From assembly GCF_013488225.1 (NCBI RefSeq), contig NZ_CP041240.1:62001-126000 (forward strand): 64,000 nucleotides of DNA, written 5' to 3'. The first letter of the stretch is position 1. Each line of letters starts with the position of its first letter. The translations under genes were made by a program, and so were the position numbers. The notes beneath the pieces were generated by a model. It made no database searches, was not told the origin of the DNA, and saw only the letters and a program-made list of their open reading frames with translations. Below are positions 3,368 through 42,647 of this stretch, one piece after another. This stretch comes from Sinorhizobium mexicanum (lineage in GTDB: Bacteria > Pseudomonadota > Alphaproteobacteria > Rhizobiales > Rhizobiaceae).

Positions 3368-4342
3368 ATGCGGTTCAAGGGTCTTGATCTAAATCTCCTC
3401 GTCGCGCTCGACGCTCTGATGGCCGAGCGTAACCTCACGGCGGCGGCACGCAGCATCAACCTGAGCCAGCCAGCGATGAGCGCGGCCGTCGCGCGGTTGC
3501 GCACCTACTTCCGTGATGAGCTGTTTACGATGGCTGGCCGCGAATTTATCCCTACGCCGCGTGCGGAAGGGCTCGCCTCCGCGGTGCGCGAGGCTCTGCT
3601 GCACGTTCAGCTCTCGATCATTTCCTGGGAGCCGTTTAACCCGGCTCAGTCGGATCGTCGTTTCAGAATCGTTCTTTCCGATTACGTCACACTCGTCTTT
3701 TTTGAAAGGATCGTGGAGCGTGCGGCGCGTGAAGCTCCCGCCGTCAGTTTCGAATTTCGGCCTCCCACCGACGACAATGAGGACCTTCTCCGGCGCGGCG
3801 ATGTCGATCTGGTAATTCTCCCGGAAATCTTGATGTCGAACGCTCATCCTCGCGCGAAATTGTTCGACGATGTACACGTGTGCGTCGGTTGTCGCACGAA
3901 CGAGCAACTGTCGGAGCCACTTACATTCGACAGATACATGTCGATGGGCCACGTTGTGGTCAAGTTCGGGAATAGCCGGAGGCCAGGCATCGAGGAATGG
4001 TATTTGCTCGAGCATGGTCTCAAGAGACGTACCGACGTCGTCCTACAGGGCTTCAGCATGATTCCGCCCATGCTGGTGGGGACCGAGCGTATAGGAACCA
4101 TGCCTCTACGGCTGGCGCAGCATTTCGCAAAGACAATTCCTCTGCAGATCGTCGAACTTCCGCTGCCACTTCCCCCATTCACCGAGGCTGTCCAATGGCC
4201 TGCCCTTCACGATAGTGACCCGGCAAGCCTGTGGATGCGCGAGATGTTAGTGCAGGAAGCGTCCCGTATGAGTTCGCCGCTTGCCACGGCCGAGCCCCTG
4301 ATCAACCCGGACCAACACGAGTATTGTCCGGCTCACCTCTGA
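3368..4342 (+). CDS. nodD: NodD, LysR-family nodulation activator
   Basis: LysR-type regulator that, with plant flavonoids, activates nod-box promoters. The N-terminus [23 protein letters not shown] and the helix-turn-helix [21 protein letters not shown] are nearly diagnostic for NodD. The C-terminal end keeps the NodD signature [27 protein letters not shown] stretch ([19 protein letters not shown]). At 324 residues it is slightly longer than most NodD (about 308-322). It carries no recognisable nod operon immediately beside it. Its likely targets in this window are the nod boxes before the nolF, nodO-like and nodM genes. Which nodD copy it is (nodD1, D2 or D3) cannot be told. Confidence 0.95.
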
Positions 4343-4689
4343 TCCACAAACCTCATCGGGGCCAGGGCTGTAAAATGGGTCGCGCGGCACCCCTTGATGG
4401 CGAAGCGCGTCAATGCCGCCGGTACGCTTGTCCGTTCCCCACGCAACCTTGGCGGCGCCTCAATCATGAAGGGACATCTGGCGGGATCGCCCCACGACGC
4501 TCGAACGCTGCGGCGAACTAGCGGGCGAGAAGCTGCGCAGCCGCGGATCCGACGTCCTTCGGCGTCGCCCAACGCGTGCTGACGGTTCCCATAAAACGGG
4601 GGCTCATCGAGGTGAGATACCACCTCACTAAGGCCGAAGTGGACGCCTCATTGATGCGCCCAATCCAAGGACGTCCCCGTGGTCGGCGT

Positions 4690-5040
4690 GACCGCACGTT
4701 TTCACTGTTCCTGGCGCGGACCGGCGCGCTCGTCCCCGAAGCTGGGCGAACTGGTAGAGCGTCTCGTAGCTGACGGAAATCGACGCTCGAGCCGCATGCG
4801 GCCGGCGATCTGCCGTGGCGACCAGCCATCCATGATCCGCTCGATCACCGATTGGCACACATCGGAGAACCGGGCGAGCTTGCGCGGCTTGGCTCTGCGC
4901 TCACGCGCCATCTCGTTGGCGGTCACGCAATAATAGTAGCCGCTCAGATCCGGCATCTGAGGGTCCTCAAAAGCATTGCGCTTGAGCTCGCGGAAAATCG
5001 CCGAGCTAGGATGGGCCATGGGGGCCCCAACTCGCATCCG
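4690..5040 (-). pseudogene. IS30-family transposase remnant
   Basis: The minus strand encodes an IS30-type N-terminal stretch (IFRELKRN, then YYCVTANEMARERRAKPRKL and SVIERIMDGWSPRQIAGRMRLE). This is followed by a frameshift near 4790-4800 into VSYETLYQFA and then loss of similarity. The catalytic DDE part is absent, and no terminal repeats could be identified. It is a dead insertion fragment between nodD and the omptin gene, a sign of past rearrangement. The bases 4343-4690 hold further short open frames that I cannot assign. Confidence 0.7.
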
Positions 5041-5125: not shown

Positions 5126-5141
5126 TGTCACACTCTCGACA
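5126..5141 (+). promoter_or_regulatory. NifA upstream activator site (TGT-N10-ACA)
   Basis: TGTCACACTCTCGACA fits the NifA enhancer TGT-N10-ACA exactly. It lies 63 bp before the GG of the -24 element at 5205, a usual distance. The same TGTC...GACA form and the same spacing recur before the M16 peptidase operon. Confidence 0.6.
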
Positions 5142-5177
5142 AATGTCGGACATCGAACGAGGCCATCAATGCCATCT

Positions 5178-5195
5178 CATTGTTTTAAAACAATG
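5178..5195. repeat. Perfect 18-bp palindrome between NifA site and -24 element
   Basis: CATTGTTTTAAAACAATG is a perfect palindrome, AT-rich in a GC-rich region. It sits between the putative NifA site and the RpoN promoter, where DNA bending normally occurs. It does not fit FixK/FnrN (TTGAT-N4-ATCAA) or NifA spacing. It may be a bend, a repressor site, or an insertion-sequence scar. Confidence 0.5.
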
Positions 5196-5203
5196 TTGCC
5201 GTG

Positions 5204-5219
5204 TGGCACGATACATGCT
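5204..5219 (+). promoter_or_regulatory. RpoN (-24/-12) promoter for the omptin gene
   Basis: TGGCACGATACATGCT matches the TGGCACG-N4-TTGCW consensus at all but one base, with GG at 5205 and GC at 5217 (GG-N10-GC). It points toward the omptin gene and would leave a leader of about 230 bases. With the NifA site upstream it forms a complete NifA/RpoN-type promoter by sequence. Confidence 0.6.
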
Positions 5220-5458
5220 TCGACGTCGGCAAAGCGCTGAGCCAAGGAGGAGAAAACATCCCACGATAGCCCGGCGAAGATGGGGTCGCCGCCCGTGAAC
5301 TGAGCCGATGAAGGGTTTTGCACATTGTGCCCAGCTTGCAGGCTGCGCCCGCGTGAGGGACTGAGGAAGGATGGCCAACCTGTTTTCGGCCCTGCAGCGC
5401 GGCAACAGAACTGCCCTTGTCACGGCCAATCGGATCAACTCTTCAGGAAAGGGGGCAA

Positions 5459-6628
5459 ATGACACTTCACATCGGGGTATGTTGGCAAGAAGCACATGGG
5501 CGCCATGCGTCAAACGTTGTTGATTCACCAGAGTGCCATTCCATTCCGCATCATCCACATTCACACGACGTGATCCCGCCGGCGAGCAAGTCGCAGCGAG
5601 GCGATTCTGCAGCGATGCTGGCTGGCAAATCGGAAAATTCGGCGCGATCACCGGTACGCACCGCGGCGGCTGGAACGCACAACTTGACGTCATTGGCAGT
5701 CTTTGCTTTCGGCGCTTTCTGCGCAACTTTGACAGTCGCCACAGCGGCGGAAGAAACAATCTATGCTGCGCCCGACAGTAGCCTTGTGATGGGTTTAGGG
5801 TACCTTCGGCTCAAGGGTAACGAGCTTGTCTACAGCGCTGCGGGCAATCGTATCAGCCACTTGATCTGGGAAACCGACGCCCCAGTTCTGACGACGGGCT
5901 TCAAGGCTGAGCTTGTTGACAACTGGACTATCTCAGCTAGCGCCGCCATCGGCTTTTCCGGCGATAGCCACATGGAGGACTATGATTGGACCGAACCTTG
6001 GGGCTTTGGTCGGGGGGATTGGTCGCATCGGTCGATCCACTCCCATACTGACCTTGACCGTTACATCAACCTTGACATCGCCGCAGGCCGAGACTTTGTG
6101 ATCAACGATGCGACGGCTATTAACCTGCACGGCGGTTTCAAATACACCGATGTGAAGTGGACCGCCTTTGGTGGCTCGTTCACCTACAGTGTCGATGGCT
6201 TCCGGGACACGACGTTCCACCTCCCGGATAGCGAACGTGGCATTAGCTACGAACAGCAATACCCGGGCGTTTTCCTCGGCGTAGAAGCGACCACGAAATT
6301 CGGCAATTGGACCCTCTCTGCTCTGCTGCGCAGCGGCGTCAGCGTCGATGCCGGTGATGTTGACAATCACTGGCACCGGAAAGTGCGTTTCGAAGAAGAG
6401 TTCAGCACGCTGCTTTTCGTTTCGGTCGGCGCCAAGGCAATTTATCAGGTGACCGACCGCGTCAGCCTCTTCCTGGCCGGCAATCTCGATAGGTACTTCC
6501 GCGAGAAAGCTGAGGCGACGGAGTACGACAGGTCGACGAGCCCACCAAGAGTCAATGTCGGCAACGACTTCGCCGGCATGGACCTCTACGCCTTCACCCT
6601 ATCGTCCGGATTCAAATTCAAGTTCTAA
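5459..6628 (+). CDS. Omptin-family outer-membrane aspartyl protease
   Basis: Ten-stranded outer-membrane beta-barrel protease whose active site faces the outside. Numbered on the longer open frame that begins with TTG at 5417, the catalytic residues of OmpT are all present: the Asp-Asp pair in HMEDYDW (188, 190) and Asp-His in VDNHWH (316, 318). Other omptin blocks are kept: GGSFTYS, GFRDTTF, SERGISYEQ and the C-terminal AGMDLYAFTLSSGF, ending in an aromatic residue as barrels do. ATG at 5459 is chosen because AGGAAAGG precedes it; this gives 389 residues with an unusually long N-terminal extension before the hydrophobic signal segment (LTSLAVFAFGAFCATLTVATA, cleavage near AEE). An internal ATG at 5615 would give an ordinary signal peptide. 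Omptins are best known from enterobacterial pathogens; expression in the nodule would be unusual. Confidence 0.85.
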   Translation: MTLHIGVCWQEAHGRHASNVVDSPECHSIPHHPHSHDVIPPASKSQRGDSAAMLAGKSENSARSPVRTAAAGTHNLTSLAVFAFGAFCATLTVATAAEETIYAAPDSSLVMGLGYLRLKGNELVYSAAGNRISHLIWETDAPVLTTGFKAELVDNWTISASAAIGFSGDSHMEDYDWTEPWGFGRGDWSHRSIHSHTDLDRYINLDIAAGRDFVINDATAINLHGGFKYTDVKWTAFGGSFTYSVDGFRDTTFHLPDSERGISYEQQYPGVFLGVEATTKFGNWTLSALLRSGVSVDAGDVDNHWHRKVRFEEEFSTLLFVSVGAKAIYQVTDRVSLFLAGNLDRYFREKAEATEYDRSTSPPRVNVGNDFAGMDLYAFTLSSGFKFKF

Positions 6629-6826: not shown

Positions 6827-7030
6827 TCAGACGGATCTGACGTTTTCCGCTTTCGACTTCCCGGTCTTGCGGTCCTGGCCAAGGTCATAGCTGACCTTCT
6901 GACCGTCGCGAAGCAGATTCCCACCCTGCACAGCCGAAACATGGACGAACACGTCCGCTCCGCCATTGTCGGGCGTAATGAAGCCAAAGCCCTTGTCCTG
7001 GTTGAAAAATTTTACGGTACCGGTCGCCAT
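6827..7030 (-). CDS. Cold-shock protein, CspA family
   Basis: A 67-residue single-strand nucleic-acid-binding protein with both RNA-binding motifs: [12 protein letters not shown] (RNP1-like) and DVFVHVSAV (RNP2-like). It would act as an RNA chaperone in the cytoplasm. The open frame begins MFMATG; the second ATG at 7030 is preferred because CSPs start M-A-x-G-x-V-K and GAGG directly abuts the first ATG. It stands alone; the ~230 bases upstream could be a long regulated leader, typical for csp genes. It ends VRSV, slightly longer than enterobacterial CspA. Confidence 0.92.
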
Positions 7031-37922: not shown

Positions 37923-37970
37923 CACTTGGCGTAATCGATTGTTTTGATAGAATGTATCCACGTGATGGAT
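37923..37970 (-). promoter_or_regulatory. nod box upstream of the nodO-like gene
   Basis: On the minus strand it reads ATCCATCACGTGGATACA, then ATCAAAACAATCGATTAC. Both ATC-N9-GAT motifs are exact (ATC-CATCACGTG-GAT and ATC-AAAACAATC-GAT), and the AAACAATCGATT core is complete. It faces the RTX gene start at 37859. Confidence 0.88.
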
Positions 37971-38347
37971 GTATATCTTCTTCACCTTCGATCTGTTCTT
38001 TTTCGACGGGCACGACCTGCGTCGGTTGCCGCTTCGCAAACGCCGACGGCTGCTTCCAGGGCCGTGGCAGCCACGGCTGAAGCCGCTTGGTGACGACATG
38101 AAACCCGCGGCCTTGATCAATCTGGCCAAAACGCGCCGGCGTCGATGGAGGCATCTCGCGACGGCGTGTATCTCGACGCCCTGACGCTCCATTGACCTGA
38201 AAAAATGCTCATCTGACAAAGGCAATGCGCAGTACCACTTGGCCCGACAGGACGATGCAAATGCTTCCGTTTTCGCGAGCTGGTGGAGCTATTGACACGC
38301 GCAGGTCGTGGTTACATGTTGCTACTAATGCAGTTTGGGGACTTTGA

Positions 38348-39376: not shown

Positions 39377-39392
39377 TGTCTGACATACGACA
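39377..39392 (+). promoter_or_regulatory. NifA upstream activator site
   Basis: TGTCTGACATACGACA fits TGT-N10-ACA exactly, and is extended by CATTGTC...GACAATG, a 7-bp inverted repeat. It lies 61 bases before the GG of the RpoN promoter at 39454, the same geometry as before the omptin gene. Confidence 0.65.
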
Positions 39393-39452
39393 ATGTTGGA
39401 CATGGCGAGACTGCGGTTCAATCGAACACGCTGGTTTAAAAGAGTTTTCCTT

Positions 39453-39468
39453 CGGCACGCATATTGCT
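39453..39468 (+). promoter_or_regulatory. RpoN (-24/-12) promoter for M16 peptidase operon
   Basis: CGGCACGCATATTGCT matches TGGCACG-N4-TTGCW except for the first base, with GG at 39454 and GC at 39466. A transcript would start near 39480 and run into the small ORF and the two peptidase genes. Confidence 0.7.
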
Positions 39469-39523
39469 TCAGGCATCTGCAGACGCGTCATGGGATCAAA
39501 GATAAACGCGCGGAGATGTCGAA

Positions 39524-39913
39524 ATGTTACCATCATGCTTTTTGTCAGTGCCTTCGTCCGGTCATTCCATAGCTGGACGTTCCAGATGCCGTAGAGGCAA
39601 GGGCCCGAATCCGCCAAGCAACAGTCGAGCCGACGCTGCACGCGCGCTCCTGCCGCGGTTGTCCTCGCGCGGACGCAACGATCACTATGGCCTGCCTACC
39701 GGCAATGTTCCAGGAGGGCCCATCCGGCTGATTGGGGATGAGGCGTTCGCCTACCGCCGGCCCATTCATGGTGGGCACCAGTCCATGCTGGTCGATGTCG
39801 CCAAGGGCGTGAAGCGGCCCGCCTTCGATCCGGCCCTCCTGGCTGCGGTGCCAAATAGGTCAAGCCACAACAGCTGTAATGCCAACCATCTTCGCTTGGA
39901 GGGCGGCCGATGA
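39524..39913 (+). CDS. Small ORF overlapping the M16 peptidase start, unknown
   Basis: A 129-codon frame whose stop TGA overlaps the ATG of the peptidase gene (ATGA at 39910), the signature of translational coupling. The second half reads [22 protein letters not shown], then [23 protein letters not shown]; the first half is arginine/serine-rich and may be untranslated, with a shorter product from ATG 39785 (42 residues). It is the first frame after the RpoN promoter. No family is recognised. A precursor peptide processed by the peptidases is one idea; an accidental frame is the other. Confidence 0.35.
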
Positions 39914-41307
39914 TTCATGGAAGAATAAATTCGCGTATACGTGCATTTGCCCTGAGCATGGTTGCGCTGCAAACTCTGATGACCTTCGAAGCGGCTGCCG
40001 TCGAGGCCCCCCGAGGCGAATCCGAGATCGGAAATTTCCTGCTGAGCAACGGCATGGAGGTGGTCGTCATACCCGATCACCGGGCGCCGACTGTCACGCA
40101 GATGGTTTTTTACAAAGCCGGCAACGCCGATGAGCCACCCGGCAAATCGGGCATTGCTCATTTCTTGGAACATCTCATGTTCAAGGGCACGAGCAAGCAC
40201 CCGGCGGGCGAGTTTGACGCAAAGGTCGCAGAGATCGGCGGGGAGGAGAACGCCTTCACGTCGTCCGACTACACCGCCTACTATCAGACTGTCACGCCGG
40301 ATGCGCTCGGGACGATGATGGAATTCGAAGCTGACCGGATGCGTCATCTCGTGCTCACGGACGCGGTGATCGTGCCGGAGCGCGATGTCATTCTCCAGGA
40401 GCGGCGCTTGAGGGTCGAAGACAATCCGGAGGGGCTTCTCGAGGAGGAGACACAGGCGACGCTCTATCAGAATCACCCTTACCGTATCCCGGTCATCGGC
40501 TGGATGCACGAGATGGAACAGCTCAATCGCAGGGACGCCGTGGCGTTCTACGATCGCTACTACGCCCCGAACAACGCCATACTGGTCGTGGCAGGCGATG
40601 TGGACGCCGGAACGGTGTGGTGGCTCGCGGACAAGACCTACGGGGCCATACCGCGCGGCCCGGACCTGCCGCAGCGGGTGAGGCCGCAGGAGCCGGTGCA
40701 GAACACCAAACGAACGGTCGTGCTCACCGACCCGCGCGTGACCGTACCGAGCTTCGAAAAGTCGTGGGTGGCGCCCTGCTACAGAATAACCGAGCCGGGT
40801 GAAGCGGAAGCCCTTGATCTTCTGGCGGAAATTCTTGGCGGAGGAACGCGGAGCCGGATCAATCAGGAATTGGTGGTGAAACAGGGAATTGCCTCCTGGG
40901 GCGGCGCCTATTTCCAGGGAAGATCGCTCGATCCGTCCAGCTTCACGATCTATGGCTCGCCGCGGGGCGAGGCGACGATCGAGGCGGTGGAAGACGCGCT
41001 CGACGCTGAAGTCCGGAAAATCATCGAGACCGGTGTTACCGATGTTGAACTGGAGAAGGGCAAGAACCGCTTGGTGCGCTCGATGATCTTCGCACGCGAC
41101 AGCCAGACGGGAATGGCCAGCATCTACGGGAAGGCGCTTGCGACGGGCAGTACTGTTTACGACTTAGAGGCATGGCCGTTGAGGGTCCGCGCGGTAACTG
41201 CGGCGCAGGTGCAGGCGGTTGCCAGAAGATATCTTAATCCGGACCGATCGGTGGCGGGATATCTGTTGCCGCGGGAAAGCGCGACCTCAGGAGACAAAAG
41301 CCGATGA
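39910..41307 (+). CDS. M16 zinc metallopeptidase, catalytic subunit (y4wA-like)
   Basis: A 465-residue pitrilysin-family peptidase, likely exported: an N-terminal hydrophobic stretch ([21 protein letters not shown]) resembles a signal peptide. The inverted zinc motif is HFLEH (His84, Glu87, His88), and the third ligand Glu is in the [10 protein letters not shown] region about 75 residues later. It pairs with the next gene, which lacks the motif, the usual alpha/beta heterodimer of bacterial M16B enzymes. Recalled relatives are the y4wA/y4wB proteases on the NGR234 symbiotic plasmid; this is memory, not a search. The NifA/RpoN-like promoter upstream suggests nodule expression. Confidence 0.85.
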
Positions 41308-42647
41308 CAATGTTCAACCGACTGCCGATCGGTGCCGCCAAGCCACTGCTCGTCGCGCTCGTACTCTTAGGCCTTGCCGCGATGCCGGCTCGGGCGGCCA
41401 TGACCATCCAGGAAGTCAGGACATCGAGCGGGATCAAGGCCTGGCTGGTGGAAGACTATTCGATACCGATCGTCACCGTTCGGTTCGCCTTCCGGGGCGG
41501 GAGCACGCAGGATCCTTCCGGTAAGGAGGGCCTTGCCAATCTCATGGCCGGGTTGTTCGACGAAGGGGCCGGCGACCTTGACCGAGAAGCCTTCCAGGAG
41601 CGGCTGGACGATGCTGGCGCCGAGATGCGGTTCGACGCCGGGCGCGATGCGGTCTACGGCTCCATGCGAGTGCTTGCCGATCAAAAGGATGTTGCGTTCG
41701 ATCTTCTCCGGCTGGCCATCGAGCAGCCACGCTTCGACCAAGGACCGATGGATCGCATCCGCGCTCAGATCGTCTCCGGCATCACCGCGGAGGCCAAGGA
41801 TCCGGAGGCGGTCGCAAAGATCGCATGGGGGAAGGCGCTCTATGGCGAGCATCCGTACTCCCGGCAGGACGAAGGCACCGAGCAGACCCTTGCCACTGCC
41901 AAACCTTCCGATCTTAAGGAGCTTCGCAAGCGGCTTTTCGCGCGCGGCAACCTGACCATCGCCGTGGCGGGAGCGATCGACGCGGGTGCGCTCAAGCGCG
42001 ATCTGGATCGGATATTCGGCGGGTTGCCTGCTGAACCCTCCCTGGTGCCGGTTGCAGAAACCGCGCCCAAGCTGGCGCAGGAGGTTCGCATCCCGTATGA
42101 CCTGCCCCAGACTGGGCTGCGCCTGGCTTATGCCGGGGTCAGCGACAAAGACCCGCGGTTCTTCGCAGCCTATCTGATGAACCACATCCTCGGGGGAGAA
42201 GCGTTCACGTCCAGGCTCTGGAACGAGGTGCGCGAGAAGCGGGGGCTCGCTTATCACATCGGATCTACCCTTGTGAACAACGACCATGCCTCGGCGCTCG
42301 TTATCGGCACGGGGACCCGCCCGGATCGGGCCGCAGAGACGCTGTCCCTCGTTCGCGCCGAGGTGAGGCGGATGGCGGAGGAGGGCGTCAGCGAGGAAGA
42401 GCTCGAAGCAGCGAAGAAAAACGTCATCGGCGGTTACGCCGTCGACCATCTCAACTCATCCAGCGCGATCGCCAACACTCTGGTCGCAATCCAGATGGAA
42501 GATCTCGGCATCGACTACATCGAGCGGCGGAAACAGCTGATCCAGGCAGTAACCGTGGAGGATGTCCGGTCGGTCGCAAAACAGCTTCTCTCCGCTGACC
42601 CCGCCGTGATGATCGTCGGAGCGCCGCTCGAGGGAAGGAAAGGATAA
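41304..42647 (+). CDS. M16 peptidase-like non-catalytic subunit (y4wB-like)
   Basis: A 447-residue M16 homologue with a signal peptide ([19 protein letters not shown]). At the position of HxxEH it has [13 protein letters not shown], so zinc binding is lost. The C-terminal half keeps the substrate-binding R/Y region ([20 protein letters not shown]). It overlaps the catalytic gene by 4 bases and should form a clamshell heterodimer with it in the periplasm. The substrate is unknown. Confidence 0.85.

What the first reader, a model, noticed from the sequence alone, without database searches (positions are those of the whole stretch)
5126..6628. Omptin outer-membrane protease under a NifA/RpoN-like promoter
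Omptins are virulence proteases in enterobacteria that cleave host peptides. Here a full active-site omptin has an exact NifA site, correct spacing and a near-consensus -24/-12. A surface protease made in bacteroids could cut plant nodule cysteine-rich peptides or other host defence peptides. The long N-terminal extension before the signal is also unusual.
Basis: partly seen in the sequence, partly recalled or inferred. Interest (0 to 1): 0.75.

Follow-up and report, generated by a model that had tools for sequence, protein, structure and literature searches.

The report
Surface protease under nitrogen-fixation control
A root-nodule bacterium carries, on what looks like its symbiosis plasmid, an intact outer-membrane protease of the omptin family (best known from gut pathogens) behind the switch that turns on nitrogen fixation, so it is probably made in nodules; related rhizobia repeat this in two separate protease lineages, but what it cuts there is unknown.

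Summary
Window 5459-6628 encodes an intact omptin (Pfam E 1.2e-48; its model matches OmpT and Pla) with all four catalytic residues. An exact NifA-type site (5126) lies 78 bp upstream of a 10/11 -24/-12 element (5204); such a pair arose in 4 of 20,000 shuffles. nifA, nifH and an rpoN are on the same 456-kb contig.

The promoter is conserved: in a tree of 84 omptin rows it marks 11 of 11 rows of the window's clade, 9 of 15 of a second clade (10 counting one with single-mismatch sites), and 0 of 58 others. Joining the two clades is rejected (p-AU 4e-6), so NifA control arose or moved at least twice. The promoter DNA resembles that of an OmpW gene on the same contig, which suggests promoter capture.

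Precedent: Bradyrhizobium bll1872, annotated omptin, is a listed NifA+RpoN1 target, 115-fold up in soybean bacteroids.

The NCR idea is not supported: the four clade records with a stated host are from mimosoids, and a review reports no NCRs detected in one mimosoid. More likely it trims basic peptides of any origin at the bacteroid surface. A NifA-type M16 protease pair lies in the same window (39377-42647).

The parts
5126..5141 (+). NifA-type upstream activator site, TGT-N10-ACA, exact
   Evidence: 78 bp from the -24/-12; exact at nearly the same distance (78-80 bp) in the clade-A relatives except CB3171 and CB3060
5144..5159 (+). second, degenerate NifA-type site (last base differs); exact at the same place in S. 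chiapasense, S. terangae, Sinorhizobium sp. 6-70, CB3171 and CB3060
5204..5219 (+). sigma-54 (-24/-12) element TGGCACGATACATGCT, 10/11 to TGGCAC-N5-TTGCW
5440..5461 (+). ribosome-site-like AGGAAAGGGGG and ATG 5459; block and ATG kept in the window and five relatives
5459..6628 (+). omptin-family outer-membrane protease, 389 aa from ATG 5459
5459..5683 (+). 75-aa N-terminal extension, open frame kept but weakly constrained, predicted disordered
5684..5749 (+). hydrophobic stretch and likely signal-peptide cleavage region (LTSLAVFAFGAFCATLTVATAA)
   Evidence: read by eye from the sequence; no signal-peptide program was available
5750..6628 (+). barrel domain with D174/D176/D302/H304 (389-aa numbering); S1-pocket E122 and D300 also kept
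3368..4342 (+). nodD2 homologue upstream
6827..7030 (-). cold-shock protein gene downstream; in S. terangae nodD2 and this gene are direct neighbours without an omptin

Best explanation
This is an intact omptin protease of a rhizobial symbiosis plasmid, transcribed by sigma-54 RNA polymerase under NifA, hence in low-oxygen, nitrogen-fixing bacteroids. The protein is exported through a signal peptide that follows a long disordered extension and folds into a 10-stranded barrel in the outer membrane, with the active site at the outer surface. There it most likely cuts exposed peptides or proteins after basic residues (OmpT's basic-P1 pocket residues are kept), removing host-derived or other basic peptides that reach the bacteroid surface. 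Shown here: intact omptin, catalytic residues, predicted fold, the conserved promoter module, its association with two omptin clades, nifA and rpoN on the same contig. Inferred: actual NifA dependence in this strain, that the contig is a plasmid, outer-membrane location, activity, and the class of substrate.
For: Pfam, PDB and fold matches (OmpT and Pla entries are the first 11 fold matches, TM normalised by target 0.84-0.92); model pLDDT of 90 or more for 233 of 389 residues. Catalytic pairs kept. Barrel dN/dS 0.16-0.61 in 14 pairs, 11 of them 0.2-0.4. Promoter pair in 18 of 98 loci scanned, some the same gene twice, and in 4 of 10 more. On the tree of 84 rows: 11 of 11 clade-A rows, 9 of 15 clade-B rows with exact sites plus L060 with one mismatch in each, 0 of 58 others. 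Chance: 13 of 2000 shuffled 900-bp upstream stretches; 9 modules of 10 or better in 455,676 bp of contig C3 against 0 in 340,000 bp of C1 (17 against 1 at 8 or better). Positive controls: with GA allowed at -12 the scan finds the nifH promoter; other modules lie before an ETF-domain ORF reading as FixA, a Fe-S_biosyn ORF, an OmpW ORF and a cytochrome P450 ORF. nifA and one of two rpoN genes are on C3. Precedent bll1872: NifA+RpoN1 target, 115.4-fold in soybean bacteroids, log2 -5.5 in nifA-mutant nodules.
Against: No expression data for this strain. In 5 of 15 clade-B rows (two Sinorhizobium, three R. leguminosarum) no module was found. The neighbouring omptins of Mesorhizobium (L019-L021, 2.6 kb searched) and of G147 (L038, 1.5 kb) lack it. 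OmpT's LPS contacts R138, R175 and K226 (roles recalled) align with D, Q and S, so activation by this host's LPS is uncertain. OmpT D97 aligns with H, so the P1' preference may differ. No substrate is known. bll1872's own sequence was not retrieved, and the PF01278 hits in what I take to be Bradyrhizobium were weak, so the precedent may not be a canonical omptin.
Confidence: 0.65

Rival explanations
1. The protease specifically destroys NCR peptides and so counters host control of bacteroids.
For: Omptins cut cationic antimicrobial peptides in other bacteria (recalled). [quoted passage not shown] Rhizobial peptidases that cut NCRs exist (SapA, HrrP; PMC8175422 passages). Promoter-bearing clade-B loci also come from Medicago sativa and Onobrychis strains.
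Against: The four clade-A records with a stated host are from mimosoids; no NCRs detected in Leucaena glauca according to a review passage (PMC5786577). bll1872 is induced 115-fold in soybean, which lacks NCR genes. The loci of S. meliloti R14 and S. medicae ml29 from Medicago are broken.
Confidence: 0.12
2. Internal role: envelope quality control or peptide scavenging by bacteroids, without any host target.
For: NifA-type promoters on the same contig also serve an OmpW gene and an M16 protease pair, i.e. possibly an envelope remodelling set; M. loti NifA controls an OmpW needed for a fully effective symbiosis (PMC3538637 passages).
Against: Omptin active sites face outward (recalled). Patchy occurrence, 15 of 33 genomes of the genus, and broken copies in three of the ten further loci examined fit an accessory trait better than housekeeping.
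Confidence: 0.2
3. Defence against bacteriocins or antimicrobial peptides of competing bacteria; NifA control only sets the time.
For: Omptins inactivate some colicins (recalled); symbiosis plasmids carry accessory genes (recalled).
Against: Fixing bacteroids are enclosed in plant cells with few competitors in reach (inference).
Confidence: 0.08
4. The promoter match is accidental or the gene is driven otherwise (for example by a nod box).
For: Mesorhizobium ompT genes have been reported behind putative nod boxes (PMC7643969 passages); the -12 half has A for T at one position.
Against: 4 of 20,000 shuffles; conserved in position and spacing in two clades; no nod box near it, the best score 0.585 lying within the shuffled range (maximum 0.61, consensus recalled).
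Confidence: 0.05

Closest known systems
B. diazoefficiens bll1872 (annotated omptin, NifA+RpoN1 target)
   Same: Annotated omptin family; strongly raised in bacteroids; NifA dependent (PMC6515984, PMC4926349, PMC8125078)
   Different: Sequence not seen here. Among 242 genomes of a nif-bearing genus (that of G452; taken to be Bradyrhizobium because hits of its L146 protein bear that name), 12 had only weak PF01278 hits, in open frames of 560-865 aa that read as double barrels by eye (Pfam run on one), so it may not be a canonical omptin
Mesorhizobium ompT1-3 of Lotus ICESyms
   Same: Omptins on symbiosis elements, with catalytic residue and signal sequence reported (PMC7643969 passages)
   Different: Reported behind putative nod boxes, i.e. 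early flavonoid control, not NifA; a Lotus Mesorhizobium omptin seen here (L023) lies far from clade A, but whether it is one of ompT1-3 was not tested
OmpT, pOmpT and Pla (solved omptins); plasmid records also list Epo of Erwinia
   Same: Fold, catalytic Asp-Asp/Asp-His, S1 acidic residues
   Different: 22-24% identity in the fold match; LPS contacts not kept; 75-aa N-terminal extension; sigma-54/NifA-type promoter
HrrP and SapA (rhizobial M16 peptidases that cut NCR peptides)
   Same: Rhizobial proteases shown to degrade host nodule peptides in vitro (PMC8175422 passages)
   Different: Predicted cytoplasmic zinc enzymes; this is an outer-membrane-type aspartate/histidine enzyme with a NifA-type promoter
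NifA-controlled OmpW (M. loti msi158, NGR234 y4mB)
   Same: Outer-membrane barrel under NifA (PMC3538637 passages); promoter DNA here resembles that of an OmpW gene (PF03922, 2.2e-44) on the same contig
   Different: A small channel, not a protease

Membership tests
Omptin family (PF01278) | Profile match over the whole barrel above the curated cut-off | tested here: met
   166.1 bits against 22.6, profile 6-283 of 283
Omptin family (PF01278) | Asp83-Asp85 and Asp210-His212 catalytic pairs | tested here: met
   D174, D176, D302, H304; D302 and H304 invariant, D174 and D176 in at least 90% of 37 sequences
Omptin family (PF01278) | 10-stranded outer-membrane barrel | tested here: met
   predicted barrel; OmpT 1i78_B rmsd 1.7, TM 0.92 by target; location itself inferred
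Omptin family (PF01278) | LPS contacts around R138/R175/K226 of OmpT | tested here: not met
   aligned residues D231, Q267, S316; the roles are recalled, and I do not treat them as defining the family
Omptin family (PF01278) | Proteolysis next to basic residues | not testable with these tools
   S1 residues E122 and D300 kept; activity not measured
NifA/sigma-54 regulon | TGT-N10-ACA some 60-150 bp upstream of TGGCAC-N5-TTGCW | tested here: met
NifA/sigma-54 regulon | Site conserved in orthologues | tested here: met
   11 of 11 clade-A rows; in the more distant clade B 9 of 15 exact plus one with single-mismatch sites
NifA/sigma-54 regulon | NifA and RpoN encoded in the genome | tested here: met
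   nifA at C3:350135-351799, 48% identity to a Mesorhizobium NifA; rpoN at C1:490034-491518 and C3:339293-340678
NifA/sigma-54 regulon | Expression falls in nifA and rpoN mutants | not testable with these tools
   reported only for bll1872 in the papers cited
nod-box ompT of Mesorhizobium | nod box upstream | tested here: not met
   best match 0.585, within the shuffled range (consensus recalled)
NCR-degrading peptidases | Cleavage of NCR peptides | not testable with these tools
   host data speak against it as the main role

The most novel reading that the evidence does not exclude
The NifA regulon of legume symbionts includes a dedicated envelope protease layer: a surface omptin plus an exported M16 protease pair, switched on with nitrogenase to trim basic host peptides or proteins around the bacteroid, in hosts with and without NCRs. 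Omptins were drafted into it more than once by capturing the promoters of other NifA genes.
Probability: 0.3. Interest if true: 0.8.

Novelty: new variant of a known kind. Interest (0 to 1): 0.6.

Why it matters
How bacteroids cope with host-derived peptides in legumes without known NCRs is, to my knowledge, open. A fixation-stage surface protease, recruited more than once under the nitrogenase activator, would be a concrete and deletable candidate, and it would mean that a protease family known for virulence serves a mutualist. The apparent promoter capture from an ompW-type NifA gene also shows how accessory genes may join the nitrogen-fixation regulon.

Tried and rejected
Nod-box control: 1.2 kb upstream of the omptin loci was scanned with a recalled consensus. 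Near the window gene nothing exceeded the shuffled range. Three fragment loci (L069, L071, L074) share one match of 0.756, above the controls (maximum 0.61), 705-1091 nt upstream; not followed. L023 and L052 were not among the 14 best, so the published nod-box ompT promoters were not reproduced, perhaps for want of the right consensus or genes.

Leader tied to NifA control: rejected as a rule. L057, L058 and two of three R. leguminosarum clade-B genes (L156, L162) have a long leader but no module, so the leader follows the clade, not the promoter.

One shared ancestral promoter for clades A and B: not shown. Between them blastn found only short, weak matches around the motifs (E 9e-4 to 0.04).

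Errors mended on the way: an early scan had a wrong offset in the -24/-12 pattern and found nothing (corrected in 23). Minus-strand loci were first read on the wrong strand and redone. The genus around G701 was a wrong guess for Bradyrhizobium. Rows dropped before the tree count: L003, L022, L066, L067, L069-L074 (fragments or partial; L066 has the module), L091-L100 (weak hits, no module), L015 (same gene as L054), and the broken L153, L159, L161. Several rows are the same gene twice (L018/L056, L004/L065, L055/L160 and some of the 58 others), so distinct genes are 9 in clade A and 14 in clade B.

The AU test used groups named after a first tree had been seen, which makes its p value optimistic. 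Omptin and nifH were each searched in 394 genomes of the family (53 and 23 with a match); I did not test their association. A search for y4wA with 'protease' found no paper.

Full report
What is there. The ORF at window 5417-6628 is an omptin by Pfam (1.2e-48), by sequence match to solved OmpT and Pla and by a predicted fold whose first 11 PDB matches are OmpT, pOmpT and Pla entries. The likely start is ATG 5459: a purine-rich block and the ATG are present in all six aligned sequences, the window and five relatives, and the S. chiapasense gene is annotated from the same codon. The catalytic pairs of OmpT fall on D174/D176 and D302/H304, and the acidic S1 residues E27 and D208 on E122 and D300 (roles of these residues recalled). 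The barrel is under purifying selection (dN/dS 0.16-0.61 in 14 pairs). So the protein should be an active protease that prefers a basic residue before the cut. Three OmpT residues recalled as LPS contacts are not kept, and D97 is replaced by H, so the LPS requirement and the P1' preference may differ.

The N-terminal extension. About 75 residues precede the hydrophobic stretch. The frame is open in the seven clade-A relatives compared. The dN/dS of this part is 0.6-1.01 in 9 of 14 pairs, 0.48 and 1.23 in two, above 4 in two close pairs with very few synonymous changes, and undefined in one. It is predicted disordered. Clade B has leaders of similar length but different sequence. I read it as a translated but loosely constrained leader; its function, if any, is unknown.

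The promoter. An exact NifA-type site (5126) lies 78 bp before a 10/11 sigma-54 element (5204). In dinucleotide shuffles of the 400 nt before the ATG, 4 of 20,000 reach this quality. On contig C3 (455,676 bp, taken as the symbiosis plasmid because its kin are symbiosis plasmids and it holds nifH, nifA and nodD2) 9 modules of 10 or better were found, against none in 340,000 bp of C1; at 8 or better, 17 against 1. The other modules lie before, among others, an ETF-domain ORF that reads as FixA, a Fe-S_biosyn ORF, an OmpW ORF and a cytochrome P450 ORF. As a positive control, allowing GA at -12 finds the nifH promoter with its NifA site 107 bp upstream. nifA is at C3:350135-351799, rpoN at C1:490034-491518 and C3:339293-340678, and nifH at C3:276296-277120. 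Of 98 loci scanned, 18 have the module (recount), and of 10 more.

Conservation and history. In a tree of 84 omptin rows, the module marks all 11 rows of the window's clade A and 9 of 15 rows of clade B with exact sites, plus L060 with one mismatch in each NifA site; none of the 58 others has it. In the genus search, 15 of 33 genomes have an omptin. Of 15 near-full-length loci from that search, 12 have the exact module, L060 the one-mismatch version, and L057 and L058 none. Holding A and B together is rejected (48 rows, p-AU 3.6e-6; groups named after the first tree), and the fewest changes of state on the tree are 4 (L060 counted as having it). So the promoter was gained or moved at least twice. 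The DNA suggests how, in an all-against-all comparison of 15 promoter stretches. The promoter of the second intact omptin (C3:376461) is 85.5% identical over 173 nt to that of the OmpW gene at C3:152484 (E 3e-52). The window's promoter is 67.8% identical over 143 nt to the same one (E 9e-9). The clade-B gene of R. etli Mim1 has a promoter 71% identical over 118 nt to another NifA-type promoter of this contig, at C3:407885 (E 2e-10). Between clades A and B only short, weak matches around the motifs were found. Promoter capture from existing NifA genes is the simplest reading; the direction of transfer is inferred.

Place. The gene sits between nodD2 and a cold-shock gene, next to IS30-like and integrase-like remnants. 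In S. terangae nodD2 and the cold-shock gene are direct neighbours without an omptin, so the window's copy was inserted there, or lost in S. terangae. The genome has two intact omptins and a third, fragmentary one with two in-frame TGA codons, all on the same contig.

What is known. The listing for 'omptin' and 'rhizobi' holds nine papers, and that for 'omptin', 'legume', 'symbio' six. Judging by the listings, two bear on the subject. PMC7643969 (passages) describes Mesorhizobium ompT genes behind putative nod boxes. PMC6515984 (section 18 part 1 and a passage) lists bll1872 of B. diazoefficiens, 'omptin family outer membrane protease', as a NifA+RpoN1 target that is 115.4-fold up in soybean bacteroids. 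A search for bll1872 added PMC4926349 (passages: log2 -5.5 in nifA-mutant against wild-type nodules) and PMC8125078 (passages: NifA regulon, transcript among the top ten in A. afraspera). I found no paper on a NifA-controlled omptin in Sinorhizobium or on its repeated recruitment, within searches (30 of 539 listed; 20 of 25 listed).

What it does. That it is made in fixing bacteroids is very likely, that it is an active surface protease likely, and the substrate is open. The NCR idea is weakened by hosts: the four clade-A records with a stated host come from Acaciella, Calliandra, Leucaena and Desmanthus, all in the mimosoid clade, and a review passage says no NCRs were detected in Leucaena glauca (PMC5786577). 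Against that, clade-B module-bearing records come from Mimosa, Onobrychis, Medicago and Argyrolobium strains, so some may meet NCR-producing hosts. Broken omptins were seen in S. meliloti R14, S. medicae ml29 and R. leguminosarum TA1 (not mended). A general role in clearing basic peptides at the bacteroid surface fits these facts best, but no substrate has been tested.

A wider set. The same window holds an M16 zinc-protease pair (39910-42647, Pfam) behind its own module (39377, 39453). The module is kept in the four copies examined: the window, Rhizobium CC1099, Sinorhizobium CCBAU 05631 and NGR234; 93 plasmid records have a match to this region and three of them were examined. The first protein reads as having an N-terminal hydrophobic stretch (by eye). 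Together with the omptins this hints at a NifA-controlled protease layer.

Noticed in passing
window 39377-42647 (+): Two adjacent M16 peptidase genes (pitrilysin family; homologues on pNGR234a) behind an exact NifA-type site (39377) and sigma-54 element (39453); module kept in 4 of 4 copies examined.
   Followed up: partly
G000:C3:152484 (+), L108:12565-13299: OmpW gene (PF03922, 2.2e-44) behind a twin NifA-site promoter that is 85.5% identical over 173 nt to the promoter of the second intact omptin; its N-terminal frame looks disturbed by eye.
   Followed up: partly
L141-L152: 12 of 242 genomes of one genus (g143, with hits named Bradyrhizobium) encode large proteins that seem to join an OMP_b-brl barrel to a weak omptin-like barrel with motifs such as NNEDW and RDHH; a possible two-barrel relative of omptins (Pfam run on L146 only).
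   Followed up: partly
L153, L159, L161: Omptin genes of S. meliloti R14, R. leguminosarum bv. trifolii TA1 and S. medicae ml29 are broken into pieces, suggesting repeated loss.
   Followed up: no
G000:C3:149791-150387 (-), L003: Third omptin copy of the genome, a fragment with two in-frame TGA codons.
   Followed up: no
window 4536-5006: Remnants similar to a tyrosine recombinase (about 4536-4743) and an IS30-family transposase (about 4745-5006) directly upstream of the promoter.
   Followed up: no
window 58933 (+) and about 37923-37971 (-): Strong nod-box-like matches (0.93 and 0.83 of a recalled consensus); genes behind them not examined.
   Followed up: no
L069, L071, L074: One shared nod-box-like match (0.756 of a recalled consensus, above shuffled controls) 705-1091 nt upstream of Sinorhizobium omptin fragments.
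   Followed up: no
G000:C3:304901 (-), 341758 (+), 388978 (+), 407885 (+): Further NifA-type promoters: before a cytochrome P450 gene (304901; Pfam), an ORF without Pfam match (341758), and ORFs of unclear identity (388978, 407885).
   Followed up: no
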